From: Rufibacter roseolus
Lineage (GTDB): Bacteria > Bacteroidota > Bacteroidia > Cytophagales > Hymenobacteraceae
Direction: 5' to 3'
DNA length: 64,000 nt
Assembly: GCF_017916365.1 (NCBI RefSeq)
Contig: NZ_JAFMSU010000001.1
Span: forward strand, 496,001 to 560,000
This document shows positions 2,711 to 63,049 of this stretch, piece by piece (the first letter of the stretch is position 1; every line of letters starts with the position of its first letter). Made by a program: the position numbers and the translations under genes. The notes beneath the pieces were generated by a model. That model was not told the DNA's origin, made no database searches, and saw nothing but the letters and a program-made list of their open reading frames with translations.

Positions 2711-2752
2711 GCGTTTTTATGCTGTTTTCCTAAAATCAGCCCCTAAACAGCA
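2711..2752. repeat. 40 bp palindrome family, copy 1
   Basis: Left arm GTTTTTATGCTGTTTTCC, right arm TAAAATCAGCCCCTAAAC. Lies 30 bp after the ABC ATPase stop and 115 bp before rnr. Confidence 0.6.
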
Positions 2753-2867
2753 TATTGTAAACACTTTCCAACGTAGAAGGGAAGCAGGATTAAAACATTT
2801 TGGCGACTGCAATGCCGCTCAGGTTCTGCCTTTGAAATCAGAATCTATTAGAAATTGAAAAGAATTA

Positions 2868-5222
2868 ATGGAAAGAAAAAGAAGAGGCCCGGGTGCCGGC
2901 AGAGATTCAGCCCCGCGGTCTGGTAATACCAGAAAAGACAAAGGCGCCCCACGCCGTGAAAGGGACGGAGGTTCCGGCAGACGCAGTGGCGGTGGCCAGA
3001 ATTCGGCCGGGCAAGTGTCCAGGGAAGTGCTGTTGAACATCTTCGGGCAGGAGCCCAAGAAGGTGTTCACGTACCGCCAACTGCACCGTCGCCTGGCCGT
3101 GACAGACAAAGAAGGCCGCGAACTTGTTTCCGGTCTCCTGAAGAAGATGAGCAAGAACGGCGAGTTGATTTTCCTGCCGGATGATTCCTATATCCTGAAC
3201 CCTGAGTTCCGGGGCAGCGTGGAGAAAAGCTTTGACCGACCTGAGCGCGGTAGCCGCAGAGAGAGAGATTCTGACCGCGGCGCCACCGTCTCCCGCCGGG
3301 GAGGCGCTACCATCGTGGGTAAAGTTGATTTGGCCAACGCCCGCCACGCCTACGTGGTGAGCGAGGAAAGCGAGCAGGACATCCGGGTACCGGTAGAGAA
3401 ACTCATGTTTGCCATGGACGGCGACACCGTGCGCGTACAACTGCGCAGAACCCGCCGGGCCAATGAACGTCCCGAGGGGGAAGTGGTGGAGGTGATCCAG
3501 CGCCAGCGCGAAGAGATTGTAGGCCGTCTGGAGCTGTCCAAAGGTTACGGCTTCATCGTGCCCGACCAGAAGAAAATGTACTTTGACGTATTTGTGGGTG
3601 AGCGCGGCCTAGCCGATGCAAACCACGGCGACAAGGTGCTGGTACGCGTAACGGAGTGGCCTGAGGACCCGCAGAAAAGCCCTACGGGCGAGATCATCCG
3701 CGTCTTCGGCCCGGCCGGAGAGCACAACGCCGAGATCCACGCCATCATGGCCGAGTTCGGGTTGCCGTTTGAGTTCCCTGAGTCAGTGGAGAAGGAGGCC
3801 AATGCCATCCCGGAGAAAATCAACCAGGAGGAAATCGCCAAGCGCCGCGACTTCAGAGACATCACCACGTTCACCATTGACCCGGCCGATGCCAAAGATT
3901 TTGACGATGCCCTTAGCATGCGCCAACTGGAGAACGGCAATTGGGAAGTGGGCGTGCACATCGCCGATGTGACCCACTACGTGCAGCCTAACAGCAGACT
4001 AGAGAAAGAGGCGTACCGCCGCGCCACCTCGGTGTACCTGGTAGACCGTACCATTCCTATGCTGCCCGAGCGCCTGTCAAACGGACTCTGCTCTCTGCGT
4101 CCAAACGAAGACAAACTCACGTTCTCGGTGGTGTTTGAGATTGATGACAACGCCAAGGTCCACAACTACTGGGTAGGCCGTACCATCATCCACTCAGATC
4201 GCCGCTTCGCTTACGAAGAAGCCCAGGAGGTGATTGAAACCGGTGAAGGTGACTACGCGCAGGAGATCCTGAAGCTGAACGAGCTGGCCAAGAAATTCAA
4301 AGACAAACGCTTCCAGAACGGAGCCGTGAATTTTGAGACCATTGAGGTGAAATTCAAGCTGGACGAGAACGGCAAGCCGCTGCACCTCTACGTGAAAGAG
4401 CGCAAAGACGCGCACAAACTCATTGAGGAGTTCATGCTGCTGGCCAACAAGTACGTGGCCGAGCACGTGTACAAGCAACGCAAAGGCAACAAGAAGCTGA
4501 CCATGGTGTACCGGACGCACGGCGCCCCGGATCCAGAGAAACTGATGAACTTCTCTGTGTTCGCCCGTAAGTTCGGGTACAAGGTAGATCTGGAAGAAGG
4601 CAAGGACATCTCCAAGGAGCTGAACAAGCTCGCTGACCAGACCCAGGGCAAGCCCGAGCAGAGCGTGCTGCAGAGCCTGGCCATCAGAACCATGGCCAAA
4701 GCCAAATACAGCACCGAGGAGGAAGGTCACTTCGGGTTGGCGTTCGCGCACTACTCGCACTTTACCTCGCCCATCAGACGGTACCCCGATATGATGGCGC
4801 ACCGCCTCATCTACCAGTATGAGCAGAAAGATTTCTCTGCTGAGAAGGAAGAGTTTGAAGAGCGCAGCCTGCACTCCTCAGACATGGAGAAACGCGCCGC
4901 CGAGGCTGAGCGGGCTTCCATCAAGTTCAAACAAGTGGAGTACATCAGCAGCTTCATTGGGCAGCAGTTCAAAGGCATCGTGTCTGGTCTCACAGATTGG
5001 GGCATGTACGTGGAGATTGAGGAGAACAAATGCGAAGGCATGGTTCGGCTGGCAGATCTGCAGGACGACTTCTACGAACTGGACTCGGCTAACTACCGCA
5101 TCATCGGGCAGAACAACAAACGCATAATCTCGTTTGGCGATGAGGTGATAGTGGAGGTGAAAGCCGCCAACGTGCTGGAGCGTACCATTGACCTGACCCT
5201 GATTGACACCGTGAAGAAATAA
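2868..5222 (+). CDS. rnr: Ribonuclease R
   Basis: 784-residue 3'-5' exoribonuclease of the RNB (RNase II) superfamily, which degrades structured RNA and takes part in RNA quality control. Order: a basic Arg/Gly-rich tail (residues 1-55, starting MERKRRGPGAGRD), a winged-helix region, cold-shock-like RNA-binding domains (SKGYGFIVPDQ), the catalytic RNB domain with acidic cluster DPADAKDFDDA near residue 345, and a C-terminal S1 domain (FKGIVSGLTDWGMYVEIEE). Unlike the E. coli enzyme, the basic tail is at the N-terminus and the protein ends soon after S1 (TLIDTVKK). A strong terminator follows the stop. Confidence 0.96.
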   Translation: MERKRRGPGAGRDSAPRSGNTRKDKGAPRRERDGGSGRRSGGGQNSAGQVSREVLLNIFGQEPKKVFTYRQLHRRLAVTDKEGRELVSGLLKKMSKNGELIFLPDDSYILNPEFRGSVEKSFDRPERGSRRERDSDRGATVSRRGGATIVGKVDLANARHAYVVSEESEQDIRVPVEKLMFAMDGDTVRVQLRRTRRANERPEGEVVEVIQRQREEIVGRLELSKGYGFIVPDQKKMYFDVFVGERGLADANHGDKVLVRVTEWPEDPQKSPTGEIIRVFGPAGEHNAEIHAIMAEFGLPFEFPESVEKEANAIPEKINQEEIAKRRDFRDITTFTIDPADAKDFDDALSMRQLENGNWEVGVHIADVTHYVQPNSRLEKEAYRRATSVYLVDRTIPMLPERLSNGLCSLRPNEDKLTFSVVFEIDDNAKVHNYWVGRTIIHSDRRFAYEEAQEVIETGEGDYAQEILKLNELAKKFKDKRFQNGAVNFETIEVKFKLDENGKPLHLYVKERKDAHKLIEEFMLLANKYVAEHVYKQRKGNKKLTMVYRTHGAPDPEKLMNFSVFARKFGYKVDLEEGKDISKELNKLADQTQGKPEQSVLQSLAIRTMAKAKYSTEEEGHFGLAFAHYSHFTSPIRRYPDMMAHRLIYQYEQKDFSAEKEEFEERSLHSSDMEKRAAEAERASIKFKQVEYISSFIGQQFKGIVSGLTDWGMYVEIEENKCEGMVRLADLQDDFYELDSANYRIIGQNNKRIISFGDEVIVEVKAANVLERTIDLTLIDTVKK

Positions 5223-5238
5223 GCGGTTTCTTTGAAAA

Positions 5239-5284
5239 GCGTTTTCGGGCTCCTTTGCTGAAAAGGGCCGGGAAACGCTTTTTA
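5239..5284 (+). terminator. Terminator after rnr
   Basis: AAGCGTTTTCGGGCTC pairs with GGGCCGGGAAACGCTT and is followed by a T run; it starts 17 bp after the rnr stop. Confidence 0.75.
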
Positions 5285-5329
5285 TGGCTTGTGAGTAAAA
5301 ACAAAAAATGCGGTTTCTTTATTTTACTG

Positions 5330-5337
5330 TAGCTTTG
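5330..5337 (+). promoter_or_regulatory. -7 element of the polyprenyl synthase promoter
   Basis: TAGCTTTG matches the Bacteroidota TAnnTTTG -7 consensus exactly. It would start transcription near 5344. The TTTC at 5314-5317 is a weak -33 partner. Confidence 0.5.
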
Positions 5338-5407
5338 GCGGTAAGTAAAGAAGCCGCATTTTCATCTAAACCAAAGGACTTTGCCCAATCGCTTAAAAAA
5401 TACTCCT

Positions 5408-6382
5408 GTGAATATCTCCCAATTCTCAGAACGTATACAACAGACGCTGTCCACGCTCCGGTACGGGCAGTCCCCCGATGAACTCTATGCCCCCATCCGC
5501 TATATGATGGATCTGGGCGGCAAAAGAGTGCGTCCGCTGCTGACAGTCCTGGGCGCTTACCTCTTCCATGACGACGTGGAAAAGGCCCTGATGCCTGCCG
5601 CAGGGGTAGAGGTTTTCCATAACTTCACGCTCATGCACGATGACATCATGGACAATGCGCCTTTGCGCCGAGGCCAGGAAACCGTGCACGAGAAATGGAA
5701 TACCAGCACCGCCATTCTCAGCGGCGATGTGATGCTGGTGCGCGCCTATGAGTGCTTTCTGGGCGTAGACCCGCAGAAATTACCCCAGGTTCTGCAACTG
5801 TTCAGTACCTGCGCCGCCGAGGTCTGCGAGGGTCAGCAGCTGGACATGAACTTTGAGAGCCGCCAGGATGTGCGCATTGAGGAATACTTGCACATGATCA
5901 AGCTCAAAACGGCTGTGCTGCTGGGCTTCGCGCTGGAACTGGGCGCGCTGCTCAACAACGCCGCCGCCGAGGATGCCCGCCACCTGAAGGAGTTCGGGAT
6001 CAACATGGGCATTGCCTTCCAGCTCCGCGATGACCTGCTGGATGTGTACGGTGACCAGGCCAAGTTTGGAAAGCGCGTGGGCGGTGACATTGTCTCTGAT
6101 AAGAAAACGTACCTGCTGCTGAAAGCCCTGGAACGTTCCTCGGCCACCCAGCGCGAGGAATTGAAAAAGTGGCAGGGGCAGGGCGGCAATGGCCGCGAAG
6201 CGCAGAAAGTGCAGGCCGTGAAGTCCATCTATGACGAGCTGGACATCCAGGGCACCACCCACAGCCAGATCAACCACTACTTCCAGAAAGCGCTCCACCA
6301 CCTAAACGAGGTCAACGCCCTCAACAGCAAAAAAGAGCTGCTCCGGCAACTAGCCCTGCAGTTGATTGAGCGCGAGAACTAA
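5408..6382 (+). CDS. Polyprenyl diphosphate synthase
   Basis: About 324 residues, all-trans prenyltransferase of the IspA/IspB family. It condenses isopentenyl diphosphate onto allylic diphosphates, probably for the menaquinone side chain. The first Asp-rich motif is LMHDDIMDN, the second QLRDDLLDVYGD; the family GGKRVRPLL motif is near the N-terminus. Product chain length cannot be told. I chose the GTG at 5408 (VNISQFSERI...), preceded by an A-rich stretch. An in-frame TTG at 5381 would add nine residues and is possible. The gene stands alone with its own promoter. Confidence 0.9.
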   Translation: MNISQFSERIQQTLSTLRYGQSPDELYAPIRYMMDLGGKRVRPLLTVLGAYLFHDDVEKALMPAAGVEVFHNFTLMHDDIMDNAPLRRGQETVHEKWNTSTAILSGDVMLVRAYECFLGVDPQKLPQVLQLFSTCAAEVCEGQQLDMNFESRQDVRIEEYLHMIKLKTAVLLGFALELGALLNNAAAEDARHLKEFGINMGIAFQLRDDLLDVYGDQAKFGKRVGGDIVSDKKTYLLLKALERSSATQREELKKWQGQGGNGREAQKVQAVKSIYDELDIQGTTHSQINHYFQKALHHLNEVNALNSKKELLRQLALQLIEREN

Positions 6383-6705
6383 TGCTTTACATAAGCCTCT
6401 GGTAAAACCACAAGCCCTCGGTAGAACTGAGCGTCGGCTTTGCCGATCCGGGGAATGGCTTTCTACTTTCAAGCTAACTGAATTTGAAGTAAGCTGTTTT
6501 AGCCCTGTTTTTCTTGAATGGCGCGTAAAACGGCTTCCATGCTTTTGGTTGCTTTTCTGAGTTGCTTTGTCCGCTAAAGGTGATTCTTCCCTCTTAGAAT
6601 ACCCCAGGGAGAATGCCAGTCATCGTCTGAATTGCGCAGGTTTTGCTAACTTGAGCCATTATCTGGGGCTGCTGCCCTATCTATTCTGTACCTATTTAGA
6701 GCCAC
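6383..6705. other. Intergenic gap between polyprenyl synthase and rhomboid genes
   Basis: 323 bp with one 40 bp palindrome (6493-6534) and no convincing gene, terminator or consensus promoter. Confidence 0.6.
6493..6534. repeat. 40 bp palindrome family, copy 2
   Basis: Outer arms GCTGTTTTAG and CGCGTAAAACGGC, inner CCTGTTTTTC then TTGAATGG. Mid-gap between two rightward genes. Confidence 0.6.
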
Positions 6706-7341: not shown

Positions 7342-7362
7342 GATTCTTTTGTATTTACCCTA

Positions 7363-7442: not shown

Positions 7443-7943
7443 ATGTTGAATTTTACGAAGTTATGTCTGGTGTTTTGCATTTGCCTGGGTTTGCAGGCGA
7501 ACGGCAAAGCTCAGTCTCTAGTGGCCAAGGTGGCGGCTGTCTCTAAAGTAAACCAAACCAGCCTAGGCGAAGGCATTGCGCAGAAAGATCCGGTGCTCCT
7601 AGACCTGGTGACCAAAGCAGGCTTAATGCCCATGCTCACCAATGGCGGGGAATACACTTTCTTTGCGCCCTCGGGCCAGGCATTAACCCAGCACCAGAAT
7701 GATTCGCCGGAACAGCTCAGAAGTTTCTTAGAGCAGCACATTGTGAAAGGAACTCTCACCACCGATGACCTGCGCGACGGTGCTGATATAAAATCAATGG
7801 GTGGCAATAACCTGCGCGTCTGCCGCAAGAAAGGAAATCTTATGGTGAGCGGACTGCGCTTGACGAAATCTGACCAACTGTATATGAACGGTGTCTGGCA
7901 CCAGCTGAGCGGAGCCATCCAAAGCAGCGCCAGTACGCTTTGA
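7443..7943 (+). CDS. Secreted fasciclin (FAS1) domain protein
   Basis: 166 residues: a signal peptide (MLNFTKLCLVFCICLGLQANGKAQS) then a single FAS1 domain. Family features visible are DLVTKAGLMPML, YTFFAPSGQAL (H1 motif) and EQHIVKGTLTTDDL (H2 motif). FAS1 domains are adhesion or matrix modules; no enzyme activity is expected. The final SGAIQSSASTL is a short end. The AGGAGGG just before the ATG is an unusually good Shine-Dalgarno match for this phylum. Confidence 0.88.
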   Translation: MLNFTKLCLVFCICLGLQANGKAQSLVAKVAAVSKVNQTSLGEGIAQKDPVLLDLVTKAGLMPMLTNGGEYTFFAPSGQALTQHQNDSPEQLRSFLEQHIVKGTLTTDDLRDGADIKSMGGNNLRVCRKKGNLMVSGLRLTKSDQLYMNGVWHQLSGAIQSSASTL

Positions 7944-8016: not shown

Positions 8017-8056
8017 CCGTTTCTAAGCCGGTTTCTGAAAAATAACGCCGAAACGG
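8017..8056. repeat. 40 bp palindrome family, copy 3
   Basis: CCGTTTCTAAGCC / GCCGAAACGG outer arms, GGTTTCTGAAAAAT centre. Sits between convergent genes, just downstream of the terminator at 7963. Confidence 0.65.
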
Positions 8057-11316: not shown

Positions 11317-11605
11317 TCTTTTACCCCTATATCTTCATTTCTATATATGACGGAGAAGGCCTATTCTTAGCCCAACCTGGATAAATAAGGCTTGAAACAA
11401 CCATGACATAGAGGCCAGAAACCAGGAAAACGGCCTGAAAGGGATTTTCAGAATGCGGCACCTTTATCCCAGAATTTAAATTCATGAGAGGCTTGGGAAG
11501 GAATTGTCTGAACTGAGTGCATTGTGATTTGAGGCTATTTTAGGAAAAACGGCAAATAAATGCGCACGGCCGTGCAACCCTTAGCGGGTATGGCTCATCT
11601 TTAGA
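11317..11605. other. Divergent gap between TonB receptor and head-GIN genes
   Basis: About 290 bp, A/T-rich near the receptor. Contains a very degenerate palindrome-family relic at 11424-11468 and no gene. Confidence 0.5.
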
Positions 11606-12677: not shown

Positions 12678-12766
12678 CCTGCCTTTATCTTAGCTACTGA
12701 GGGAGATATGGGGGTAAAGTGCAGGTTATCGGTCTCAAGAAGAAGATGCCCCGAACTACCTCTTCT

Positions 12767-13771: not shown

Positions 13772-13814
13772 GGTTCTGTTTTAGCGCCTCTTTTCTGAAA
13801 AAAGCCCCTAAACC
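13772..13814. repeat. 40 bp palindrome family, copy 5
   Basis: GGTTCTGTTTTAGCGCC, CTTTTCTGAAAA, then AGCCCCTAAACCC. Starts 7 bp after the lipoprotein stop and ends 11 bp before the convergent patatin stop. Confidence 0.7.
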
Positions 13815-16143: not shown

Positions 16144-16495
16144 ATGAAATCTGACTAGAATATGGATCTGAAAGAATTGGCTTATTGCAATTGCTCTGTT
16201 CTCCTGGAAGCAGAAAGGGGGGACTTTTTCTGTTAAACGAGAAAACCGGTAAGGAAACACTAAAAATCAAAGGCAAAGCCGCTTAGGAGCACTTACTGGC
16301 ATAGCCCGGAAAAGGTTGGAGTCCTGAACCAGAAAAGGCTTGGTTTTATCTTACCTGCCAAAGGCAAGGCAAATCTGCCCAGGAATCTTGCACAAATCAG
16401 AGGAGCACGGGCGCGTGTGCAGAGAAAGGAAGTTCCGTTTCAGGCCTGTTTCAGGGATTTCAGCCGCAAAACACCATTGCGGGAGGTAGGGAAAT
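16144..16495. other. Gap between patatin and HTTM genes
   Basis: 352 bp between two leftward genes. Holds one palindrome-family copy (16435-16472); no gene or consensus promoter seen. Confidence 0.6.
16435..16472. repeat. 40 bp palindrome family, copy 6
   Basis: CCGTTTCAGGCCTGTTTC, AGGGATT, then TCAGCCGCAAAAC. 24 bp beyond the stop of the leftward HTTM gene. Confidence 0.6.
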
Positions 16496-17863: not shown

Positions 17864-17956
17864 GGATAGTTGTACTCCAGGCAAAATAAAACAGTTGAAT
17901 GTACAAGTCTACGGTTCTTTGCCCATGAAGTAAACCAAAAGAAAATGTCTTACACC

Positions 17957-17991
17957 AAAACAGCCTGGCATTACAAGTGCCGGGCTGTTTT
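17957..17991 (-). terminator. Terminator of the M28 peptidase gene
   Basis: AAAACAGCCTGGCA / TGCCGGGCTGTTTT, 14 bp stem with one wobble, reading leftward into TTTT. A palindrome-family copy overlaps its right arm. Confidence 0.7.
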
Positions 17992-18024
17992 GAAGGTGTT
18001 TTCAGGAAAAAAGGCCTGAAATGC
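17984..18024. repeat. 40 bp palindrome family, copy 7
   Basis: GCTGTTTTGAAGGTGTTTTC then AGGAAAAAAGGCCTGAAATGC. Ends 4 bp from the M28 peptidase stop and shares its first bases with the terminator arm. Confidence 0.6.
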
Positions 18025-19498: not shown

Positions 19499-19540
19499 AC
19501 GGTTTAGGCCCTGTTTCCCGGAAAAGAAGGCAGAAACGGC
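19499..19540. repeat. 40 bp palindrome family, copy 8
   Basis: ACGGTTTAGGCCCTGTTTC, CCGGAAAAG, AAGGCAGAAACGG. In the divergent gap between the M28 and gdh genes, so it cannot be only a 3'-end element. Confidence 0.6.
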
Positions 19541-21667: not shown

Positions 21668-21898
21668 ACGTATCATTCTGCTAATAAGGCTGCTATATGC
21701 TTTAAGTTGACTTAGCCTTCATACAGAAAATTTCTCCTATGCTTACAAGTCCTTACTTCAGCTTGATGTATTCGTAGCCAATTTTTGAAAATCAGGTCCA
21801 AAATAACTCTGATATGTCAGCGGAGACGTTATTTCCGGCAGAAAGTGTAATTTACCTGGGGCCAAGGCTACTAATACCTTAAACCTTTACGTACCACG
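21668..21898. other. Upstream region of the sigma factor operon
   Basis: 230 bp, A/T-rich, no ORF. No exact TAnnTTTG match is apparent close to the GTG start; the promoter may belong to another sigma class. Confidence 0.4.
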
Positions 21899-26115: not shown

Positions 26116-26166
26116 TCCCTCTTTCAAGGCCGTTTTCTGCAAAACAGCCTTGAAAGAGGGATTTTT
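26116..26166 (+). terminator. Terminator built on a palindrome-family core
   Basis: TCCCTCTTTCAAGGC, CGTTTT-ctgc-AAAACA, GCCTTGAAAGAGGGA, then TTTTT. The ~20 bp stem has one mismatch. The centre GTTTTCTGCAAAAC equals the centre of the perfect copy at 58870. Confidence 0.85.
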
Positions 26167-26240: not shown

Positions 26241-26279
26241 CTGTTTTAGCCTCGATTTCTGAGAAGCGGCCGCAAAACG
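26241..26279. repeat. 40 bp palindrome family, copy 11
   Basis: CTGTTTTAGCCTCGATTTC, TGAGAAGC, GGCCGCAAAACG. 44 bp upstream of the YdjM-type gene start. Confidence 0.6.
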
Positions 26280-41064: not shown

Positions 41065-42330
41065 ATGGACCTTGCCTACATGTATATGATTGCCGCGGCA
41101 GGATTCCTGCTGCTTTCGCTCTTCAGTGTGGCAGAGGTGGCCTTGCGGCAGATTGGGCGGGCCTACATCAGACTACAGGTCACGGAAAACCGAAAGTCCA
41201 TCATCGGGTTTCTCCTGAGCCGTGAGAAGCAGACGCTGTTCACCATTCAGTTAGGTCTGGGGCTGGGCTTCCTTTTATTTGGTTTAGGAGGCTTGGGAAG
41301 TCTTTCTGCGCTACTGCAACCATATTTACAGTTTTTCCTTGCGTTTGCATTGGCGGGTCTGGCCACTATCATGTTGGCCTGGCTGCTGTTTCTGGTGGTG
41401 GGTATGCTGGCTAGCCTGGTGGCGGCCGCCAGTCTGCTGAAAGTGATCTCTCCGCTGGTAGCCTTCTTCTTTGTGCTTTTTTACCCCATTACTTTTCTGG
41501 CTACCGCGGTTTCAGGCCTGTTTTCTTCAAATGAGGACGAAAACGAGACCGATGTCCTGGCCAACGCCTTGGCTTTTCAGCCCTTTGCGGTAAGGCTCTC
41601 CTCCCCGGATGAGATTGTGCTGGCGCCTTCCAGCGAGGTGGACAGCAAGATCTTCAACAATGCCCTGGAGTTCAAGAACGTGAAGGTACGGGAGTGTATG
41701 GTGCCCCGCACCGAGATTGACGCCATTGAGTTGGAAGAAGGCGTACAGGTGCTCCGCGAGGCGTTCATTGAGACCGGCCACTCTAAAATCCTCATCTACC
41801 AGGACTCCCTGGACCATATTCTGGGCTACTGCCACCAATTTTCCCTGTTCAACAATCCGGCTACGGTAGAGGAGATTCTCACGCCCATGGAAGCCGTGCC
41901 CGAGACCATGCTGGCCCGTGAGCTCTTTGTAAAGTTCATCACCGAACACCGCAGCATTGTGCTGGTGCTGGATGAGTTTGGCGGCACCTCTGGGATTGTG
42001 ACCCTAGAAGATGTGATGGAAGAGATTCTGGGTGATATCAATGATGAGTATGATGAGGAGGATCTGTTAGAGCAGGCGCTGCCACAGCCGGGTTCTTACC
42101 TCTTCAGCGCCCGCCAGGAAATAGACTACCTCAATGAGAAGTACGAGCTTAACCTGCCCGAGGGCGACTATGAAACTTTAGGTGGTTTTATCTTGTCTGT
42201 ACTGGAGGAAATACCCAAGGCGGGCGATGTGATAGTGGTCCCGCCCTTTGAAATCAGGATCCTTTCTATGGATGAGCACCGCATCAATACGGTACATCTT
42301 TCAGTAAGGTTGGCCTCTCCAGAAGAATAA
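41065..42330 (+). CDS. CNNM/CBS domain membrane protein (HlyC/CorC-type)
   Basis: 421 residues. N-terminal DUF21/CNNM transmembrane domain (to about residue 155), then a CBS pair with VKVRECMVPRTEIDAIEL, SKILIYQDSLDHILGYCH and VLDEFGGTSGIVTLEDVMEEILGDI, and a C-terminal transporter-associated domain (ETLGGFILSVLEEIPKAGD). Related proteins move Mg2+ or Co2+ or act in envelope homeostasis; ion not determined. In the coaX operon. Confidence 0.9.
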   Translation: MDLAYMYMIAAAGFLLLSLFSVAEVALRQIGRAYIRLQVTENRKSIIGFLLSREKQTLFTIQLGLGLGFLLFGLGGLGSLSALLQPYLQFFLAFALAGLATIMLAWLLFLVVGMLASLVAAASLLKVISPLVAFFFVLFYPITFLATAVSGLFSSNEDENETDVLANALAFQPFAVRLSSPDEIVLAPSSEVDSKIFNNALEFKNVKVRECMVPRTEIDAIELEEGVQVLREAFIETGHSKILIYQDSLDHILGYCHQFSLFNNPATVEEILTPMEAVPETMLARELFVKFITEHRSIVLVLDEFGGTSGIVTLEDVMEEILGDINDEYDEEDLLEQALPQPGSYLFSARQEIDYLNEKYELNLPEGDYETLGGFILSVLEEIPKAGDVIVVPPFEIRILSMDEHRINTVHLSVRLASPEE

Positions 42331-44591: not shown

Positions 44592-44629
44592 ATTTAGCGG
44601 CCTATTTTCAAAAATCGGGGTTAAAACAG
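44592..44629. repeat. 40 bp palindrome family, copy 16
   Basis: ATTTAGCGGCCTATTTTC, AAAAATCG, GGGTTAAAACAG. Between terminator and TPR gene. Confidence 0.6.
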
Positions 44630-46529: not shown

Positions 46530-46590
46530 CGGCTGCTGTTTTAGGACTACTTTCTTATAAATGGGCCTAAAACGGCTGCCGGATTTTATT
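46530..46590. terminator. Palindrome-family copy acting as terminator after the TPR gene
   Basis: Arms CCGGCTGCTGTTTTAGGAC and GGCCTAAAACGGCTGCCGG, then ATTTTATTT, 22 bp after the stop and 10 bp before the convergent PH-gene stop. Confidence 0.7.
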
Positions 46591-47035: not shown

Positions 47036-47130
47036 GGCCTTACGGGTTGGTGCGCCTAAGGTAGAAATACCAGAGAGAAAACCAAGAAGGAAGAACCAAC
47101 GCTTTATAGCGACGCCCGTTTCCAAAGTCT

Positions 47131-47165
47131 TTTGGGCCTGATTTCCTTAAAACAAACCTGAAACG
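47131..47165. repeat. 40 bp palindrome family, copy 17
   Basis: TTGGGCCTGATTTCC, TTAAAAC, AAACCTGAAAC. Ends on the base before the stop of the small 38-residue gene. Confidence 0.5.
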
Positions 47166-49132: not shown

Positions 49133-49171
49133 CCGCTGTTTTAAGCCAGTTTTACCAAAAGCAGGGCAAAA
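49133..49171. repeat. 40 bp palindrome family, copy 18
   Basis: CCGCTGTTTTAAGCCAGTTTT, ACCAAAAGCAGGGCAAAAA. 14 bp after recJ. Confidence 0.55.
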
Positions 49172-49181
49172 ATATGATGTT

Positions 49182-49510: not shown

Positions 49511-49633
49511 TATCGTTCTAAGTCTATTTTCCCTAAAACACATTAGAAGCAGCATTTAGGGGTGGATAAGTTCGCATCTGAGGGGCAGATGGTGTATTTT
49601 TAGATTTCCATCCTACACAAACAAGCTCTATTG

Positions 49634-52809: not shown

Positions 52810-52847
52810 CTGTTTTAGCCCTGATTTCAGGAAAAGAGTGCTAAAAC
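52810..52847. repeat. 40 bp palindrome family, copy 20
   Basis: CTGTTTTAGCCCTGATTTC, AGGAAAAG, AGTGCTAAAAC. Its final base is the first of the GH25 stop codon read leftward. Confidence 0.7.
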
Positions 52848-54841: not shown

Positions 54842-56362
54842 GTGGAGATAATCAATTCGCTTGTGACGTGGGTAATGAAGAAGAGGATCCATCAGATAGA
54901 CCTTTTCCGGAAGTACCCGCATGATGTTCAGAACGAATTGTTCACCAACCTCATTTCCACGGCCAAGAATACCGAGTGGGGACAGAAATACGGCTACTCA
55001 GATAAATTGAGCGTGCGCGAGTTTCAGGAACGCGTGCCGGTCTGCGCCTATGAAGATCTGTACCCCTGCATTGAGCGCGTTATGCGTGGCGAACAAAACG
55101 TGCTATGGCCCAGCAAGGTGGAATGGTTTGCCAAATCATCGGGTACCACCAATGCTCGCAGTAAGTTTATTCCCGTTACCCCAGAGGCCTTGGAAGACTG
55201 TCACTACAAAGGAGGCAAAGACATGCTGTCCATTTACGTGAACAACTACCCAGACACGAAGATATTTTCCGGTAAGGGCCTCTCCATCGGGGGCAGCCAC
55301 CATCCCAACGAGTTCAACTCAGAAACCCGCTGCGGCGATGTCTCGGCGGTGATTATGCAGAACCTGCCTATTTGGGCCGAGGCCATGCGCACGCCACCAC
55401 TCAAAGTGGCACTTATGGACAAGTGGGAAGAGAAGATTGAGAAGATGGTAGAGATCACCGTCAAAGAAAATGTGACCAGCCTTTCGGGCGTGCCCACCTG
55501 GACCTACGTGCTTTTAAACCGCATTTTAGAAGAAACAGGCGCAAAGGACATCACCGAGGTATGGCCTAACCTAGAGCTGTTTACCCACGGAGCGGTGGCT
55601 TTCGGTCCATATAGAGAACTGTTCCGGCAGCTGATTCCTACCGAGAAGATGAACTACCTGGAGGTCTACAATGCCTCCGAAGGGTTCTTCGGTATACAGG
55701 ACGAGCCCAGCCTCAAAGATGAGATGCTCCTGATGCTGGATTACGGCGTATTCTACGAGTTCATCCCCATGGAAGAAGCAGACCAGCAAAACCCCAAGGT
55801 GCTAACCTTAGACCAGGTGGAGCTTGGTAAGAACTACGCCCTGCTGATTTCCACTAATGCCGGTCTGTGGCGCTATAAAATAGGGGATACCGTTAAGTTC
55901 ACCTCTCTGGATCCGTACCGCATCAAGATCTCGGGCAGAACCAAGCATTTCATCAACGCCTTCGGCGAAGAGGTGGTGGTAGAGAATGCCGAGACCGCTA
56001 TTACGAAGGCCTGCGAGGCCACTGGCGCCACCATCACCAACTTCACGGCCGCGCCGGTGTACTTTGAGGGCAAGAGCAAAGGCGGGCACCAATGGGTCAT
56101 AGAGTTCTCCCAGCAGCCTTCCAGTTTAGCGCACTTCACCGATGTCTTAGACCAAACGCTGCGCAAGGTCAACTCAGACTACGATGCCAAACGGCAGAAA
56201 GACCTGGCCTTGCAGGCACCGCTCATCACCGTGGCTCCCTCCGGCGCCTTCCTGAACTGGCTTCAGCACAAAGGCAAACTGGGTGGCCAGCACAAAGTGC
56301 CGCGCCTTGCAAATAACCGTGAGTACCTGGAGGAGATTCTGGCAGTAAATAACCTTTCCTAG
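54842..56362 (+). CDS. GH3-family acyl-adenylate/amide synthetase
   Basis: 506 residues from a GTG. GH3 superfamily: EWGQKYGYSDKLSVREFQERVP, ATP/AMP motif FAKSSGTTNARSKFIPVT, HGAVAFGPYRE, YNASEGFFGIQ, and GLWRYKIGDTVKF with KISGRTKHFINAFGEEV. Plant GH3 enzymes conjugate amino acids to hormones; bacterial substrates are unknown. Stand-alone gene. Confidence 0.9.
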   Translation: MEIINSLVTWVMKKRIHQIDLFRKYPHDVQNELFTNLISTAKNTEWGQKYGYSDKLSVREFQERVPVCAYEDLYPCIERVMRGEQNVLWPSKVEWFAKSSGTTNARSKFIPVTPEALEDCHYKGGKDMLSIYVNNYPDTKIFSGKGLSIGGSHHPNEFNSETRCGDVSAVIMQNLPIWAEAMRTPPLKVALMDKWEEKIEKMVEITVKENVTSLSGVPTWTYVLLNRILEETGAKDITEVWPNLELFTHGAVAFGPYRELFRQLIPTEKMNYLEVYNASEGFFGIQDEPSLKDEMLLMLDYGVFYEFIPMEEADQQNPKVLTLDQVELGKNYALLISTNAGLWRYKIGDTVKFTSLDPYRIKISGRTKHFINAFGEEVVVENAETAITKACEATGATITNFTAAPVYFEGKSKGGHQWVIEFSQQPSSLAHFTDVLDQTLRKVNSDYDAKRQKDLALQAPLITVAPSGAFLNWLQHKGKLGGQHKVPRLANNREYLEEILAVNNLS

Positions 56363-56560
56363 TCAAAAAGGGAGAACTTTCCGCTAACCTGTGAGTATCG
56401 GCGTTTAACGCCTGTTTTCCCGTAAACTGCTCTGGAATAGCGGGCTTATAACCTTAGCTTTTTGACCTGGGTGTTTTGCCTAGCATTTCAGGAAAATAGG
56501 CTCAAAAGAAGCCATTGATTTTGAGGCAGGTCATAATATCAGGATCATGTCTACTGTAGT
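56363..56560. other. Gap after the GH3-family gene with two palindrome relics
   Basis: Degenerate palindrome-family pieces at 56399-56430 (CGTTTAACGCCTGTTTTCC) and 56471-56514 (GTGTTTTGCCTAGCATTTC, AGGAAAATAGGCTCAAAAG). No gene. Confidence 0.5.
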
Positions 56561-57503: not shown

Positions 57504-57506
57504 GTT

Positions 57507-58855: not shown

Positions 58856-58869
58856 GTTAGACCTAAAAC

Positions 58870-58905
58870 ATTTTGGGGCTGTTTTCTGCAAAACAGCCCC
58901 AAAAT
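58870..58905. repeat. 40 bp palindrome family, perfect copy 21
   Basis: ATTTTGGGGCTGTTTT-ctgc-AAAACAGCCCCAAAAT, a 16 bp perfect stem. 40 bp downstream of the gltX stop (minus strand). The best-preserved member of the family. Confidence 0.9.
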
Positions 58906-58944
58906 CATATGTATCGCATTTCTCTGCCTGCGCAGAAATTAGCG

Positions 58945-60483
58945 TTAAGCAGCGTACTGGGCCAGCTTGGTCAACGCGGCATCAATCCGGCTTTCAGTTT
59001 CTTCCCGGCCGATGATCTCAATGATGGCCATCAGGTCTGGGCCTGCTTCCACGCCGGTCAGGGCTATTCTCAAGGCCTGCATTACCTGGCCAATTTTCAA
59101 GCCATTGCGCTCCAGAACCTGTAGCAACAGGGCTTTTACAGAATCAGCGTTGAACTCTGGCAGAGAAGCTAGCTCGTTTCTGAATTCCTCAAAGGCTCCG
59201 GCAGCAGCAGCCGACCATTTCTTGGCCGCTACCTGCTCATTGTACTGCGTTGGCGCCACGAAGAAGTAAGCAGCCTCTTTCCAGAAATCCTGCGGGAAGG
59301 TCACGCGCTCTTTCATCAGGCTCACGATCTTCTCGGCGCGCTCTTCAGAGCACTCAATGCCTTGCTCGGGCAGGGCTGCCAGCAGGTACTGGGCTAATTC
59401 TGCGTCTGGTTTGGCGCGCAGGTATTGCTCATTGTACCAACGGGCTTTCTGGATATCGAAACGGGTACCGGATTTACCGATGCGCTCAATGCTGAAGGCC
59501 TCAATGAGTTCTTCCATAGAGAAGATCTCTTGCTGCGTGCCCGGGTTCCAGCCCAGGAAGGCCAGGAAGTTCACGAAACCGTCTGGCAGGTAACCCGCCT
59601 CTCGATAGCCGCTTGATTTCTCGCCGGTCACCGGATCTACCCAGTTCAGCGGGAATACCGGGAAACCTAACTTATCACCGTCGCGCTTGCTCAGTTTACC
59701 GTTGCCATCTGGTTTCAATAGCAGCGGTAAGTGTGCGAACTCCGGCATAGTGTCTTCCCACCCGAAGTAGCGGTACAGCAACACATGCAGTGGGGCACTT
59801 GGCAACCACTCCTCGCCTCTGATCACGTGGGTGATGCCCATCAGGTGGTCATCCACGATGTTAGCCAGGTGATAGGTTGGCATGCCGTCAGACTTCATCA
59901 AAACTTTGTCATCAATGGCCGAGGAATGCACCATTACCCAACCTCTGATCAGGTCTTTCAGACGAACTTCTTCTTTACGGGGCACTTTCAGACGGATCAC
60001 ATATGGGTCACCGCTCTCCAATCTGCGTTTCACCTCATCCTCCGGCAAAGTGAGGGAGTTCTTCATAGTGGCGCGGGTGATGGCGTTGTACTGTGGGGTG
60101 GCTACCTTAGCGGCTTTCAGGCGCTCGCGCATTTCTTCCAGTTCCTCAGCAGTGTCAAAAGCATAATAGGCGTGGCCGGCGTTCACCAGTTGCAGGGCGT
60201 AGTCCATGTACATGGGCTTACGCTCAGACTGGCGGTAAGGGGCGTGCGGGCCGCCGTGCACCGGGCTTTCGTCCAGTTTAATGCCGCACCACTCTAAGGA
60301 GTCAAAGATGTATTGCTCGGCGCCGGGCACAAAGCGGGTTTGATCTGTATCTTCAATGCGCAGTATCATTTTACCGCCCATTTTTTTAGCAAAAAGGTAA
60401 TTATACAGCGCTGTGCGTACCCCACCAATATGCAGCGGCCCGGTAGGGCTAGGGGCAAAGCGTACTCGTACTTCTCTTTCCAT
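58945..60483 (-). CDS. gltX: Glutamyl-tRNA synthetase
   Basis: 512 residues from the ATG at 60481-60483 (MEREVRVRFAPSPTG); the 15 upstream codons are leader. Class I HIGH-like motif PSPTGPLHIGG and KMSKS-like KLSKRDGDK. Charges tRNA-Glu. Conserved anticodon-binding C-terminal domain present. Promoter lies just upstream. Confidence 0.96.
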   Translation of the reverse strand: MEREVRVRFAPSPTGPLHIGGVRTALYNYLFAKKMGGKMILRIEDTDQTRFVPGAEQYIFDSLEWCGIKLDESPVHGGPHAPYRQSERKPMYMDYALQLVNAGHAYYAFDTAEELEEMRERLKAAKVATPQYNAITRATMKNSLTLPEDEVKRRLESGDPYVIRLKVPRKEEVRLKDLIRGWVMVHSSAIDDKVLMKSDGMPTYHLANIVDDHLMGITHVIRGEEWLPSAPLHVLLYRYFGWEDTMPEFAHLPLLLKPDGNGKLSKRDGDKLGFPVFPLNWVDPVTGEKSSGYREAGYLPDGFVNFLAFLGWNPGTQQEIFSMEELIEAFSIERIGKSGTRFDIQKARWYNEQYLRAKPDAELAQYLLAALPEQGIECSEERAEKIVSLMKERVTFPQDFWKEAAYFFVAPTQYNEQVAAKKWSAAAAGAFEEFRNELASLPEFNADSVKALLLQVLERNGLKIGQVMQALRIALTGVEAGPDLMAIIEIIGREETESRIDAALTKLAQYAA

Positions 60484-60509
60484 GTTGTATAGGTATTTCA
60501 ATCGAGGTG

Positions 60510-60517
60510 CAAAAGTA
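60510..60517 (-). promoter_or_regulatory. -7 element of gltX
   Basis: Minus strand TACTTTTG, exact TAnnTTTG; TTTA 19 bp further upstream is a possible -33. Leaves a ~20 nt leader. Confidence 0.6.
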
Positions 60518-60640
60518 CGGTATTTCAAGTCTTCCGTAAAGCTTTTATCCTTAAAACCTTGCGTCTCTGTTTACTAATTATTCCGGGCTGGTTTTCCCTG
60601 CTTCTCAGGGCTTTTGCTTAGGAAACCACTTGTGTTCCAA

Positions 60641-60648
60641 TAAGTTTG
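60641..60648 (+). promoter_or_regulatory. -7 element of the YihY-type gene
   Basis: TAAGTTTG, exact TAnnTTTG. TTTG at 60613-60616 is 24 bp upstream, slightly long spacing. Confidence 0.5.
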
Positions 60649-60693
60649 TAAACCTGCCGCTTTTAGTACGTATGAAGGAGGAAAATAAACTAC

Positions 60694-61686
60694 ATGCTGA
60701 AAAGTAAGCTAAAGAAGGCTTGGAGTATCATTGTAGAGGTTTGGCTGGATTTTCTGGACAACAACTCGTTCCAGAAAGGAGCGGCCTTGGCTTACTATAC
60801 CATATTCGCGCTGCCGCCTATCCTGATCATCATGATCAATACCGCCGGGGCCATCTTTGGGAAAGATGCGGTGCGGGGCCGGGTGTACGAGCAACTGCGT
60901 GATCTTCTGGGCAGTAAAGGGGCCTACGATATTCAGGAGATGGTAGAGAACATCAACCAGTCGGCTGACTTTACCTTTGCCACTGTGGTGGGGGTGTTTA
61001 CCTTGCTTATAGGGGCCACCGGGGTTTTTGTCTCCCTGCAAGAGTCACTGAACCAGATTTGGGGCGTGAAACCCAAACCCCGAAACGAGTACCTGAAGCT
61101 GCTCTGGGACCGGCTGCTATCCTTCGCTATGATTCTGGCCATTGTGTTCCTGCTGCTGGTGAGTCTGGTAGTGCACACCGCATTGGTGGCCATCACCTCT
61201 TTCCTGACAAACCGGATTGATGAGTCTATCCTGCAACTCACCTGGATTGTCAATTGGGTGGGTTCCACGGGGGTGGTCACCTTTCTGTTCGCGTTGATCT
61301 ATAAATTTCTGCCCGATGCCAAAATCAGGTGGGGCGATGTTTGGATAGGGGCCCTGGTCACGGCCGTCCTCTTTTCGCTGGGAAAATCATTGATTGGCCT
61401 CTACCTAGGAAACAGCGACTTTGCCGGTATCTATGGGGCCGCGGGCTCGGTGATTGTGGTGCTCACCTGGGTGTTTTATACCTCGCAGATCGTTTTCATC
61501 GGGGCCCAGTTCACTTTGGTGTACGCCCGCCGCTACGGAGCTGATATCTATCCTTCAACCTACGCGGTACGGGTCATCAACAAAGAAGTGGAGGTGGGGC
61601 ATGCCCCCGTGAACGATGAACCAGGCCCTAATGAGGCCAAAGCCAAAGGCGAAGACTGTGAAGTTGACGAGAAGGTAAAGGATTGA
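60694..61686 (+). CDS. YihY/BrkB family inner-membrane protein
   Basis: 330 residues, about six transmembrane helices. YihY hallmarks: FQKGAALAYYTIFALPPILIIM, GATGVFVSLQESLNQIWGV, KFLPDAKIRWGDVWIGALVTAVLFSLGKSLIGLYLG and GAAGSVIVVLTWVFYTSQIVFIGAQFT. Cytoplasmic acidic tail. Function uncertain (once misnamed RNase BN). AAGGAGG lies 15 bp before the start, rare here. Confidence 0.9.
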   Translation: MLKSKLKKAWSIIVEVWLDFLDNNSFQKGAALAYYTIFALPPILIIMINTAGAIFGKDAVRGRVYEQLRDLLGSKGAYDIQEMVENINQSADFTFATVVGVFTLLIGATGVFVSLQESLNQIWGVKPKPRNEYLKLLWDRLLSFAMILAIVFLLLVSLVVHTALVAITSFLTNRIDESILQLTWIVNWVGSTGVVTFLFALIYKFLPDAKIRWGDVWIGALVTAVLFSLGKSLIGLYLGNSDFAGIYGAAGSVIVVLTWVFYTSQIVFIGAQFTLVYARRYGADIYPSTYAVRVINKEVEVGHAPVNDEPGPNEAKAKGEDCEVDEKVKD

Positions 61687-61799
61687 ATGAATGAGAGAAT
61701 AAAAGGACGGATGTCTGCTTAAAGCCTGTTTTCCTGAAGACTGCCTTAAAATATATCAGGTAGACTCCATTACAATTCCATTCTCTCATTCATTCAATC
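61681..61799. repeat. Nested inverted repeat between convergent YihY and RidA genes
   Basis: Perfect 20 bp arms: GATTGAATGAATGAGAGAAT (61681-61700, including the YihY stop) and its complement at 61780-61799. A palindrome-family copy (61715-61752) lies between them, so the whole can fold as a long hairpin. Confidence 0.75.
61715..61752. repeat. 40 bp palindrome family, copy 22
   Basis: CTGCTTAAAGCCTGTTTTCC, TGAAGACTGCCTTAAAAT. Inside the 20 bp nested inverted repeat. Confidence 0.65.
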
Positions 61800-61812
61800 T
61801 CTCCATCACTCA

Positions 61813-62196: not shown

Positions 62197-62212
62197 ATGC
62201 AAAATGGTTAAT

Positions 62213-62240
62213 CTGTATCTTTACAGGCTTAAAGGTACAG
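62213..62240. promoter_or_regulatory. Overlapping divergent promoters in a palindrome
   Basis: CTGTATCTTTA, CAGGCT, TAAAGGTACAG: 11 bp arms with one mismatch, containing a rightward TATCTTTA and a leftward TACCTTTA -7 element, for the 62245 gene and ridA. Confidence 0.5.
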
Positions 62241-62244
62241 AAAT

Positions 62245-62658
62245 ATGAACACATTGGTTTTAGCCACGGAAGAGCAGGAAGCAGAAGTAAGCCTTAAATT
62301 CTATAACAGAGCCTATTTGCATTTACAAGACCCGGCAGAACTGAAAGCCTGGCTTCCGCAAGCGAATTTAGTGATTGATTTGCTTCTGCATGAGAGACCA
62401 GAGCGCCTGGCGCAATACAACCAGCAAGGCAAAGGCGACAAACTAACCGTGTTCTTCAACGCAAACCATCTAAACCTAACGGAGTTTACCTCAGCTTACT
62501 CCCCACTCAATTTCAACCTAGCCGGATTAATAGGCGAACCACTTGTGAACAAAGAAGTTCTGGAAGTAGTCCCTCTTCGCGAGGATTCCCACCGCTCTAT
62601 TGACAAGGCTTTCGTGTTCCTGGCCTCGCTTTACCAATTGGTGAAGAATCACAAATAG
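62245..62658 (+). CDS. Protein of unknown function, 137 residues
   Basis: MNTLVLATEEQEAEVSLKFY... The N-terminus (TLVLAT plus acidic helix) and LPQANLVIDLLLHERPERL look like a Rossmann-type alpha/beta domain, but no cofactor motif GxGxxG is present. The middle FFNANHLNLTEF and GEPLVNKEVLEVVPLRE fit further strands. Probably soluble and cytoplasmic. Shares a divergent promoter palindrome with ridA. Confidence 0.7.
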   Translation: MNTLVLATEEQEAEVSLKFYNRAYLHLQDPAELKAWLPQANLVIDLLLHERPERLAQYNQQGKGDKLTVFFNANHLNLTEFTSAYSPLNFNLAGLIGEPLVNKEVLEVVPLREDSHRSIDKAFVFLASLYQLVKNHK

Positions 62659-62659
62659 G

Positions 62660-62697
62660 GGTTTACAGCCTCTTTTCGCGAAAACAGCCTCAAAACA
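62660..62697. repeat. 40 bp palindrome family, copy 23
   Basis: GTTTACAGCCTCTTTTC, GC, GAAAACAGCCTCAAAAC: arms complementary at 14 of 17 positions. 2 bp after the stop of the 137-residue gene. Confidence 0.7.
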
Positions 62698-62727
62698 GAA
62701 GGGTTTTATTGAGCCTTTGCTATTCTT

Positions 62728-62990
62728 CCGCTGGCGCGAGCGTCCCGCTCGTGTGCACGTATTGCAGAAAGGACTTTGTCGGGCTTTTCAGAGATAAGGT
62801 TCTCCAGCCTACTCAAGCCCTATCGCTCCTCCTCTTCTGTCATCTTGGAAAGATCTTGTGGGCGAACTAGAAAGGCATTAGAGAAACGGCACTACCGCTT
62901 GCCCACAAGATCCTTGCAGGATGACAAAGGTGTGGGTGAAGTGATTATCAGCAATGCGTACGGACACGAGCGGGACGCTCGCGCCAGCGG
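62728..62990. repeat. Compound nested REP element
   Basis: Outer inverted units CCGCTGGCGCGAGCGTCCCG... (62728-62760 and reverse complement 62956-62990) enclose inner inverted units GTCATCTTGGAAAGATCTTG... (62837-62880 and 62897-62926). The inner unit is the repeat found at 54573. Confidence 0.8.
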
Positions 62991-63005
62991 GGGAAGTATC
63001 CTTAG

Positions 63006-63049
63006 CTTGTTTTAAGGCTGTTTCCCAAAAACCAGCTTAAAACAGCAAG
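63006..63049. repeat. 40 bp palindrome family, copy 24
   Basis: CTTGTTTTAAGGCTGTTTC, CCAAAAAC, CAGCTTAAAACAGCAAG. Its right arm is shared with the terminator at 63039. Confidence 0.65.

What the first reader, a model, noticed from the sequence alone, without database searches (positions are those of the whole stretch)
2711..63049. Dispersed ~40 bp degenerate palindrome in most intergenic gaps
Reading every gap shows the same design: an outer arm GTTTTAG or variants, inner CCTGTTTTC, a 2-4 nt loop, GAAAA(CAG), then (G)GCCTAAAAC. Copies: 2711, 6493, 8017, 12400, 13772, 16435, 17984, 19499, 21095, 25311, 26116, 26241, 29378, 29995, 34382, 35087, 44592, 46530, 47131, 49133, 52552, 52810, 58870, 61715, 62660, 63006, plus relics at 11424, 30953, 56399 and 56471. 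One copy (58870-58905) is a perfect 16 bp stem. Sequence differs between copies while the fold is kept, so it is not simply recently spread. None lies inside a called gene. I know of no named family with this sequence.
Basis: partly seen in the sequence, partly recalled or inferred. Interest (0 to 1): 0.8.

Follow-up and report, generated by a model that had tools for sequence, protein, structure and literature searches.

The report
Thousands of DNA docking sites genus-wide
Every sampled genome of the bacterial genus Rufibacter carries many copies of a roughly 36-base symmetrical DNA signal, often just past the ends of genes and often at the same places in different species, and its pattern of conservation points to a protein that grips and wraps the DNA (perhaps DNA gyrase) rather than to an RNA hairpin or a jumping element.

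Summary
The repeat is real: 29 of 30 listed copies score >=20 bits; 20 shuffles gave 0 hits. It belongs to the genus Rufibacter: a degenerate form matches 16 of 16 genus genomes drawn (24-1208 sites each) and 0 of 43 others; reversed control 0. It is not chiefly a conserved fold. Over 182 own-genome copies aligned with R. hautae, four trinucleotides (TTT, TTT, AAA, AAA) resist change (7% mismatch), while the spacers between them change at least as fast as the flanks (21-25% vs 15-20%). G-U and A-C pairs are equally common on the transcribed strand; compensated pairs concentrate in copies with long stems. Density follows gene 3' ends, places are often shared across species, and several species have their own spelling. 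GC content oscillates every ~10.5 bp to about 75-88 bp on both sides, around a 36-bp centre, as published for the E. coli gyrase motif. Best reading: DNA-wrapping protein sites at transcription-unit boundaries, gyrase the leading candidate; binding untested, gyrase genes look ordinary. REP/RAYT and intrinsic terminators fail their tests.

The parts
2713..2748 (.). element core (GTTT..AAAC, 36-bp dyad), after stop of 858-2681
   Evidence: 44.5 bits; 3' element in 10 of 10 orthologs (own included here and below)
   Evidence: 33.8 bits; 12 of 12 orthologs
6496..6531 (.). element core
   Evidence: 34.3 bits; 10 of 12 orthologs of 5381-6382
8019..8054 (.). element core in convergent gap
   Evidence: 35.4 bits; 10 of 11 orthologs of 7443-7943
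11526..11561 (.). element core in divergent gap, not listed
   Evidence: 29.2 bits
12401..12436 (.). element core
   Evidence: 42.4 bits; 12 of 12 orthologs of 11606-12355
13778..13813 (.). element core in convergent gap
   Evidence: 35.0 bits; 6 of 6 orthologs of 12719-13765
16437..16472 (.). element core
   Evidence: 32.7 bits; 4 of 9 orthologs of 16496-17884
17987..18022 (.). element core
   Evidence: 37.4 bits; 10 of 12 orthologs of 18028-19404
19502..19537 (.). element core in divergent gap
   Evidence: 34.0 bits
21097..21132 (.). element core
   Evidence: 24.6 bits; 11 of 13 orthologs of 19635-21083
21769..21804 (.). weak element core, not listed
   Evidence: 21.0 bits
25311..25346 (.). 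element core abutting stop codon of 23824-25311
   Evidence: 24.0 bits; 8 of 14 orthologs
26121..26156 (.). element core with extended paired flanks
   Evidence: 36.3 bits and sequence; 12 of 14 orthologs of 25349-26041
26243..26278 (.). element core
   Evidence: 36.4 bits
29379..29414 (.). element core after stop of 29418-29921(-)
   Evidence: 26.7 bits; 14 of 14 orthologs, 12 of them within 3 bp of the stop codon
29998..30033 (.). element core
   Evidence: 30.6 bits
   Evidence: 34.1 bits
34386..34421 (.). element core, 84-90 bp after stop of 33593-34297 in 14 of 14 genomes
   Evidence: 37.7 bits
35089..35124 (.). degenerate element core
   Evidence: 22.2 bits; 6 of 14 orthologs of 34465-34947
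41509..41544 (.). element core inside the coding sequence 41065-42330, encodes a GLFS-type peptide
   Evidence: 33.0 bits; same place in 10 of 10 Rufibacter loci; peptide
44592..44627 (.). element core
   Evidence: 34.6 bits; 15 of 16 orthologs of 42414-44519
46538..46573 (.). element core after 44685-46508
   Evidence: 35.0 bits; 15 of 16 orthologs
47129..47164 (.). element core about 246 bp before recJ
   Evidence: 37.1 bits; 242-248 bp before recJ in 9 of 10 Rufibacter loci (not in L084)
49138..49173 (.). element core after recJ (47410-49119)
   Evidence: 34.9 bits; 15 of 16 orthologs
49515..49550 (.). element core, not listed
   Evidence: 25.9 bits
52553..52588 (.). element core 0-4 bp after stop of 49631-52549
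   Evidence: 34.4 bits; 15 of 15 orthologs
52812..52847 (.). element core touching stop of 52847-53617(-)
   Evidence: 37.0 bits; 15 of 15 orthologs
56403..56438 (.). element core
   Evidence: 24.8 bits; 10 of 15 orthologs of 54842-56362
56473..56508 (.). element core
   Evidence: 21.4 bits
58870..58905 (.). element core, perfect 16-bp stem
   Evidence: 40.0 bits; 8 of 8 orthologs of 58945-60528
61717..61752 (.). element core
   Evidence: 32.0 bits; 2 of 5 orthologs of 60694-61686
62661..62696 (.). element core, 2 bp after stop of 62245-62658
   Evidence: 43.0 bits; 3 of 3 orthologs
63009..63044 (.). element core
   Evidence: 32.2 bits; 3 of 3 orthologs of 63106-63969

Best explanation
Each element is a two-fold symmetric binding site read in double-stranded DNA. 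Shown: a 36-bp core of the form GTTT-NN-RRSYY-NN-TTT-YNNR-AAA-NN-RRSYY-NN-AAAC, in which the four TTT/AAA tracts are the parts protected from change. Shown: flanks with a 10.5-bp GC rhythm on both sides to about 75-88 bp, so the unit is about 150-170 bp of DNA. Shown: density follows gene 3' ends as judged from gene order (convergent > same-direction > divergent gaps), and in the window region many places are kept across the genus. Inferred: a protein bends the core at the dyad and wraps the flanks. Inferred: its job is at the boundary of transcription units, removing the positive supercoils that pile up ahead of RNA polymerase and keeping neighbouring units apart. Most likely ligand (inferred): DNA gyrase, a type IIA topoisomerase, because the reported E. 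coli gyrase motif has the same anatomy (36-bp centre, two flanks with 10.75-bp rhythm, symmetric about a 4-bp staggered cut). The second choice is a Rufibacter-specific wrapping protein.
For: Constraint on four tracts only: mismatch 7.1-7.5% per tract against 21-25% in spacers, 28% in the centre and 15-20% in flanks, with fewer gaps, over 182 copies; four further genome pairs with 16-26 copies each agree (tracts 5.8-10.2%, spacers 28.7-36.1%, flanks 15.4-22.6%). Fixed spacing: TTT-N9-TTT-N4-AAA-N9-AAA occurs 83-126 times per 400-464 kb of Rufibacter; outer N8 is also common (13-121, as TTTT runs allow), N7 2-10, other outer spacings 0-2. The same pattern occurs 1, 0, 0 and 0 times in 347 kb Pontibacter, 22 kb Adhaeribacter, 390 kb Hymenobacter and 661 kb of others. 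GC rhythm of 10.5 bp: amplitude 0.024; random intergenic dyads reach at most 0.0087 in 100 trials, displaced centres 0.0119 in 100; constant phase in three successive windows to 88 bp, 0.0006 at 75-125 bp. It survives removal of neighbouring elements and of A4/T4 runs (0.029). E. coli gyrase motif. Location: elements per kb in convergent / same-direction / divergent gaps of 100-600 bp are 4.4-5.5 / 2.4-3.3 / 1.3-1.7 in four genomes, and 12 of 93 convergent gaps are empty against 35 under Poisson. DNA rather than RNA: G-U 175, A-C 172 on the transcribed strand in 141 copies.
Against: No binding data. Gyrase in particular: no extra GyrA/ParC or GyrB/ParE copy (2 and 2 in 16 of 16 genus genomes); 9 Rufibacter GyrA proteins show only 6 genus-fixed differences from six sister-genus proteins, none near the catalytic tyrosine; the sister genera searched lack the sites. 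The species dialects are not explained. The flank rhythm shows little sign of current selection (W to S change 10.6% at minima vs 12.1% at maxima). 23 of the 182 copies lie in divergent gaps; 23 of 23 are shared with R. hautae and their tracts change least (4.4%), which a pure 3'-end role does not predict. Order relative to a detected terminator is mixed: of 109 gene ends with both in two genomes, the terminator comes first in 51 (own same-direction 21 of 30, own convergent 15 of 36, G006 same-direction 7 of 22, G006 convergent 8 of 21), last in 31, overlapping in 27. Some pairing is kept: 43 of 63 doubly changed pairs that were paired stay paired.
Confidence: 0.45

Rival explanations
1. A Rufibacter-specific DNA-wrapping or nucleoid protein (not gyrase) binds the dyads and acts as a boundary or insulator; its changing specificity produced the species dialects.
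For: Sites in 16 of 16 genus genomes and 0 of 43 others, while gyrase looks much the same in sister genera; species dialects over conserved tracts.
Against: No candidate protein found; I had no way to list genus-specific genes. The 36-bp centre plus 10.5-bp flanks match the published gyrase motif closely.
Confidence: 0.3
2. REP-like or MITE-like mobile palindromes spread by a RAYT or other transposase and later decayed.
For: Dispersed short intergenic palindromes in large numbers; near-identical arms in some genomes (one 19-base arm 26 times in G005); Y1 transposase homologs in 15 of 16 genus genomes, own included.
Against: Kept in place between species (159 of 182 shared with R. hautae). Selection on four tracts. 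Y1 homologs also in most sister-genus genomes without the element, and none in G007, which has 28 elements in 60 kb. No GTAG/CGTC tag. The three own-genome Y1 genes have 1, 3 and 1 elements in about 3.2 kb, close to background.
Confidence: 0.1
3. RNA hairpins: intrinsic terminators or mRNA 3'-end stabilisers.
For: Enriched at 3' ends; a minority have long stems with compensated changes, and some overlap detected terminators (27 of 109).
Against: Only a weak T excess after the element (TTTT within 50 bp: 45% after, 33% before). Ordinary terminators are detected at similar rates in Rufibacter (35%, 34%, 27% in three sets) and Pontibacter (39%). G-U equals A-C. Elements in divergent gaps are the best conserved.
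Confidence: 0.07
4. DNA uptake signal for natural transformation, with species dialects like those of Neisseriaceae.
For: Spread over the genome, 24 to 1208 strict sites per genome, species-specific spelling over a fixed core.
Against: 88-96% of copies in four genomes are not inside called genes, all 480 arms in the own genome sample are different, and density follows gene 3' ends.
Confidence: 0.04
5. Bare curved DNA that pins plectoneme tips, with no dedicated protein.
For: Phased A/T tracts and a 10.5-bp rhythm.
Against: The flank rhythm is out of phase with the outer core tract (GC minima at 16, then 22, 31, 40, 51 bp from the dyad), and the spacer letters follow dialects.
Confidence: 0.04

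Closest known systems
E. coli DNA gyrase motif (PMC6379681; passages, section 23)
   Same: Symmetric, 36-bp centre, flanks with about 10.5-10.75-bp GC rhythm over 130 bp or more; a 4-base centre fits a 4-bp staggered cut.
   Different: The E. coli motif is called long and too degenerate for standard motif finders; here the centre is a discrete repeat, often fixed in place, found only in this genus among those searched, with species dialects. Binding not shown.
REP/BIME elements with RAYT transposases (PMC2817692 and PMC3733652, passages)
   Same: Short intergenic palindromes at high copy; BIME-2 elements are gyrase targets in E. coli (passage).
   Different: No GTAG or CGTC tag, no flanked RAYT, conserved orthologous positions, spacers mostly free to mispair.
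GapR, binder of overtwisted DNA at 3' ends (PMC8360656, passages)
   Same: Acts downstream of transcription units and between convergent ones.
   Different: GapR is described as following overtwisted DNA, not a fixed 36-bp dyad. I did not test for a homolog.
DNA uptake sequence dialects of Neisseriaceae (PMC3630211, passages)
   Same: Many copies, species dialects around a core common to all dialects.
   Different: 10-12-mers, commonly inside genes; here a 36-bp dyad mostly outside genes.
HIP1 palindrome of cyanobacteria (search listing only; details recalled)
   Same: Highly iterated palindrome of lineage-wide reach and uncertain function.
   Different: Eight bases and often in genes (recalled).

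Membership tests
REP/RAYT | GTAG or CGTC tag at one end | tested here: not met
   Column frequencies in four genomes show no such tetranucleotide at the element's ends
REP/RAYT | a transposase gene flanked by two inverted copies, present with the elements | tested here: not met
   Own three Y1 loci have 1, 3 and 1 elements in about 3.2 kb each; G007 has no Y1 hit, most sister-genus genomes have Y1 without elements
REP/RAYT | presence differs between related genomes at the same gap | tested here: not met
   159 of 182 shared with R. hautae; of 47 gene ends, 22 have the element in at least 80% of sampled orthologs, 15 in at most 20%, 10 between
Intrinsic terminator | hairpin followed by a U-tract on the transcribed strand | tested here: not met
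   separate terminators; 27 of 109 elements beside a terminator overlap it
Structured RNA | compensatory change and wobble excess on the transcribed strand | tested here: not met
   No excess; small excess and 43 of 63 double changes kept paired, concentrated in a minority
Known Rfam family | match at gathering score | tested here: not met
   0 matches in the window
Gyrase site | 36-bp symmetric centre with about 10.5-bp GC rhythm in flanks over 130 bp | tested here: met
   compared with the text of PMC6379681, not with its matrix
Gyrase site | enriched at ends of transcription units, most between convergent ones | tested here: met
   from gene order, not from transcripts
Gyrase site | bound and cut by gyrase with a 4-bp stagger at the dyad | not testable with these tools
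   needs cleavage mapping
Gyrase site | genus-specific change in gyrase that would explain genus-only sites | tested here: not met
   No extra copies; 6 genus-fixed GyrA differences, none near the active site; GyrB sequences not aligned
DNA uptake sequence | short sequence with many exact copies, common inside genes | tested here: not met
   480 of 480 arms distinct in own genome; 4-12% of copies inside called genes

The most novel reading that the evidence does not exclude
Rufibacter chromosomes carry a dedicated boundary system: a genus-specific DNA-wrapping protein, or a gyrase recruited to fixed sites, sits at most transcription-unit ends, a bacterial counterpart of insulators. Hundreds to thousands of its sites per genome have changed spelling together, in place, as its specificity drifted between species.
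Probability: 0.35. Interest if true: 0.92.

Novelty: new variant of a known kind. Interest (0 to 1): 0.8.

Why it matters
Where gyrase or nucleoid proteins act is usually a faint genome-wide tendency. Here sequence alone seems to mark a discrete site at many transcription-unit ends throughout a genus, with natural variants in 16 sampled genomes. If so, it would allow a direct test of how bacteria manage torsion and separate neighbouring units, and of how a protein and very many of its sites change specificity together.

Tried and rejected
Fold reading: covariation counted on the window alignment and on larger samples; supported only for a minority. Transcribed-strand wobble test negative. Terminator replacement: Rufibacter keeps ordinary terminators at rates like Pontibacter's. 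REP/RAYT: rejected as above. Insertion inside the 41065-42330 gene: sister-genus proteins differ there, but no clean insertion could be read. Gyrase change: no extra copies, nothing striking in GyrA. Flank-rhythm selection: inconclusive. The binding protein was not found; I did not search for it beyond gyrase and Y1 transposases.

Limits: my gene caller covers 61-74% of the sequence and trims some starts, so some 'divergent' or long gaps may hide small genes. The model was trained on the same DNA that it counts, with Markov shuffles as control. Copy numbers beyond the sampled 400-464 kb are extrapolated (own 517 per Mb). The 47-gene table rests on 3 to 16 genomes per gene, own included. Searches use only copies of score >=25; only gaps of 100-600 bp. 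The 16 genus genomes are those the tool drew; the genus may have more.

A mis-typed pattern (wrong spacing) gave 0 everywhere, the own genome included; it is disregarded and one search is the corrected search. One search failed (structure one column short), one search failed (a term not accepted; repeated as with other terms).

Full report
What was checked. The window lies in an unnamed 5.5-Mb genome (G000, contig 1, 496001-560000). Its RecJ protein is 96% identical to that of Rufibacter hautae; the searches drew 16 genomes of its genus, own included. I built a 50-column model of the repeat from 464 kb of this genome and scanned the window: 29 of the 30 listed places score 20 bits or more, with 0 hits in each of 20 shuffles. 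The listed place 11424 fails.

How many. With genome-specific models: 240 copies in 464 kb of the own genome, 174 in 400 kb of G005, 152 in 400 kb of G013, 144 in 400 kb of G006, with 0 in one shuffled control of each. Whole genomes with the bare core TTT-N9-TTT-N4-AAA-N9-AAA: 932 sites against 18 for the reversed control in G000, and 531/19, 1319/6 and 752/7 in the three other genus members drawn; the 41 other family members drawn had 0-38 against controls of 0-18. With the fuller degenerate pattern, 16 of 16 genus genomes have 24 to 1208 sites, 43 of 43 others have 0, and controls are all 0. In 80 named RecJ loci, 9 of 9 Rufibacter/Sabulibacter loci hold 7-14 copies and 71 of 71 others hold none at 20 bits.

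What is conserved. I aligned 263 gaps with R. hautae, holding 182 elements. Mismatch is 7.1-7.5% in each TTT or AAA tract (single columns 3-14%), 21-25% in spacers, 28% in the centre and 15-20% in flanks; gaps are rarer inside the element. Counting only sites where the own base is the consensus narrows the contrast but does not remove it (1-9% at tract columns, 9-34% at spacer columns). Four other genome pairs agree. Spacers show a mild purine-purine-S-pyrimidine-pyrimidine rule, with a raised transition share at columns 13-14 and 16-18. So the symmetry is best read as that of a protein site (inference).

Fold. On the window alignment paired cells do not exceed shuffles (67.6% vs 68.2%). In 188 and 134 copies the excess is 2.7 and 2.6 points. 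Elements whose pairing runs seven or more bases outward number 19 of 174, 11 of 152, 9 of 240 and 12 of 144, against fewer than one expected in each. Between own and R. hautae, 38 of 182 copies have at least one compensated pair, 29 of them just one, and the rate per copy rises with stem length. Of 63 core pairs that were paired in the own genome and changed on both sides, 43 stay paired, which is more than chance would give and counts for pairing in part of the copies. On the transcribed strand G-U (175) and A-C (172) are equal in 141 copies near a stop codon, and 237 to 247 in 191. A minority therefore double as hairpins, some overlapping terminators; the rest show no sign of evolving as RNA.

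Where. In gaps of 100-600 bp, elements per kb fall from convergent (4.4-5.5) through same-direction (2.4-3.3) to divergent (1.3-1.7) in four genomes; 12 of 93 convergent gaps are empty against 35 under Poisson. Of 47 window gene ends, 22 have a 3' element within 150 bp in at least 80% of sampled orthologs, 15 in at most 20% and 10 in between; by window coordinates, 13 of those 15 are followed by another gene within 170 bp. Of 109 gene ends with both an element and a detected terminator, the terminator comes first in 51, last in 31 and overlaps in 27; only the own same-direction set is clearly terminator-first (21 of 30). Divergent-gap elements are 23 of 23 shared with R. hautae with the lowest tract change (4.4%, against 6.1% in same-direction and 11.3% in convergent gaps), so the site is not only a 3'-end mark.

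Dialects. Consensus spellings over the same tracts differ clearly in G005, G013, G014/G007 and G001; the own genome, R. hautae and several others share a looser one. Between G005 and G013 orthologous copies are no more alike than non-orthologous ones (distance 0.365 vs 0.359, 7 shared sites), while copies within each genome are alike (0.21-0.25). Between own and R. hautae orthologs are much closer (0.229 vs 0.411, 20 sites). The mean over all pairs listed is 0.358 against 0.387. Sites keep their places while their letters change together in some lineages. I have no mechanism for this beyond a shift in the specificity of what reads them.

Wrapping. Averaged over 708 elements in four genomes and folded at the dyad, GC content oscillates with a 10.5-bp period from 25 to about 75-88 bp (amplitude 0.024). 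Random intergenic centres reach at most 0.0087 in 100 trials and displaced centres 0.0119 in 100; the phase is constant over three windows, and the amplitude is 0.0006 at 75-125 bp. It persists without neighbouring elements and without runs of four A or T (0.029, null maximum 0.017). Single genomes give 0.0205-0.030; three exceed their null maximum and G005 falls just under its own (0.0237 vs 0.0246). The E. coli gyrase motif is described as a centre from -16 to 19 and flanks from -63 to -17 and 20 to 66 with 10.75-bp GC periods, symmetric about a 4-bp staggered cut (PMC6379681, section 23). The element's core is 36 bp and its centre is four bases between TTT and AAA. The flank rhythm is out of phase with the outer core tract, as two differently bent parts would be (inference).

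Against gyrase. Gyrase genes look ordinary: two GyrA/ParC and two GyrB/ParE homologs in each of the 16 genus genomes, and 6 GyrA positions fixed in 9 Rufibacter and absent from six sister sequences, none near the active tyrosine. GyrB was not aligned. So either ordinary gyrase meets unusually strong sites, as with some BIME-2 elements in E. coli (passages), or another wrapping protein is responsible.

Novelty. No Rfam match in the window. Three literature searches naming Rufibacter with palindromic, intergenic or repeat listed 2, 1 and 13 papers, none about such an element by title or the part of the abstract shown; subscription journals are mostly not in that library. A large survey of REP sequences has no mention of Rufibacter, Hymenobacter or Pontibacter in its main text (term search).

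Noticed in passing
window 41065-42330 (element at 41509-41544): An element lies inside a coding sequence at the same place in 10 of 10 Rufibacter loci and follows the species spelling in some (L081, L082), so the protein spells it out (GLFS-type peptide).
   Followed up: partly
G151 (same order, unnamed, 72% complete): 102 core-pattern hits against 25 in the control, from what looks like a different repeated palindrome.
   Followed up: no
G176 (1.0-Mb genome, same order): 43 core-pattern hits against 4 in the control.
   Followed up: no
G005 (Rufibacter immobilis by contig coordinates; L196-L215): Two classes of half-site coexist; the 41 copies with AG at the centre tend to join an old-style arm to a new-style arm.
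   Followed up: partly
centre columns, four genomes: The middle two bases tend to avoid self-complementary pairs (for example CG 6 seen, 33 expected in G005), with no clear strand preference.
   Followed up: partly
window 1715-1750: A 31-bit hit inside the ABC transporter gene 858-2681, not checked in relatives.
   Followed up: no
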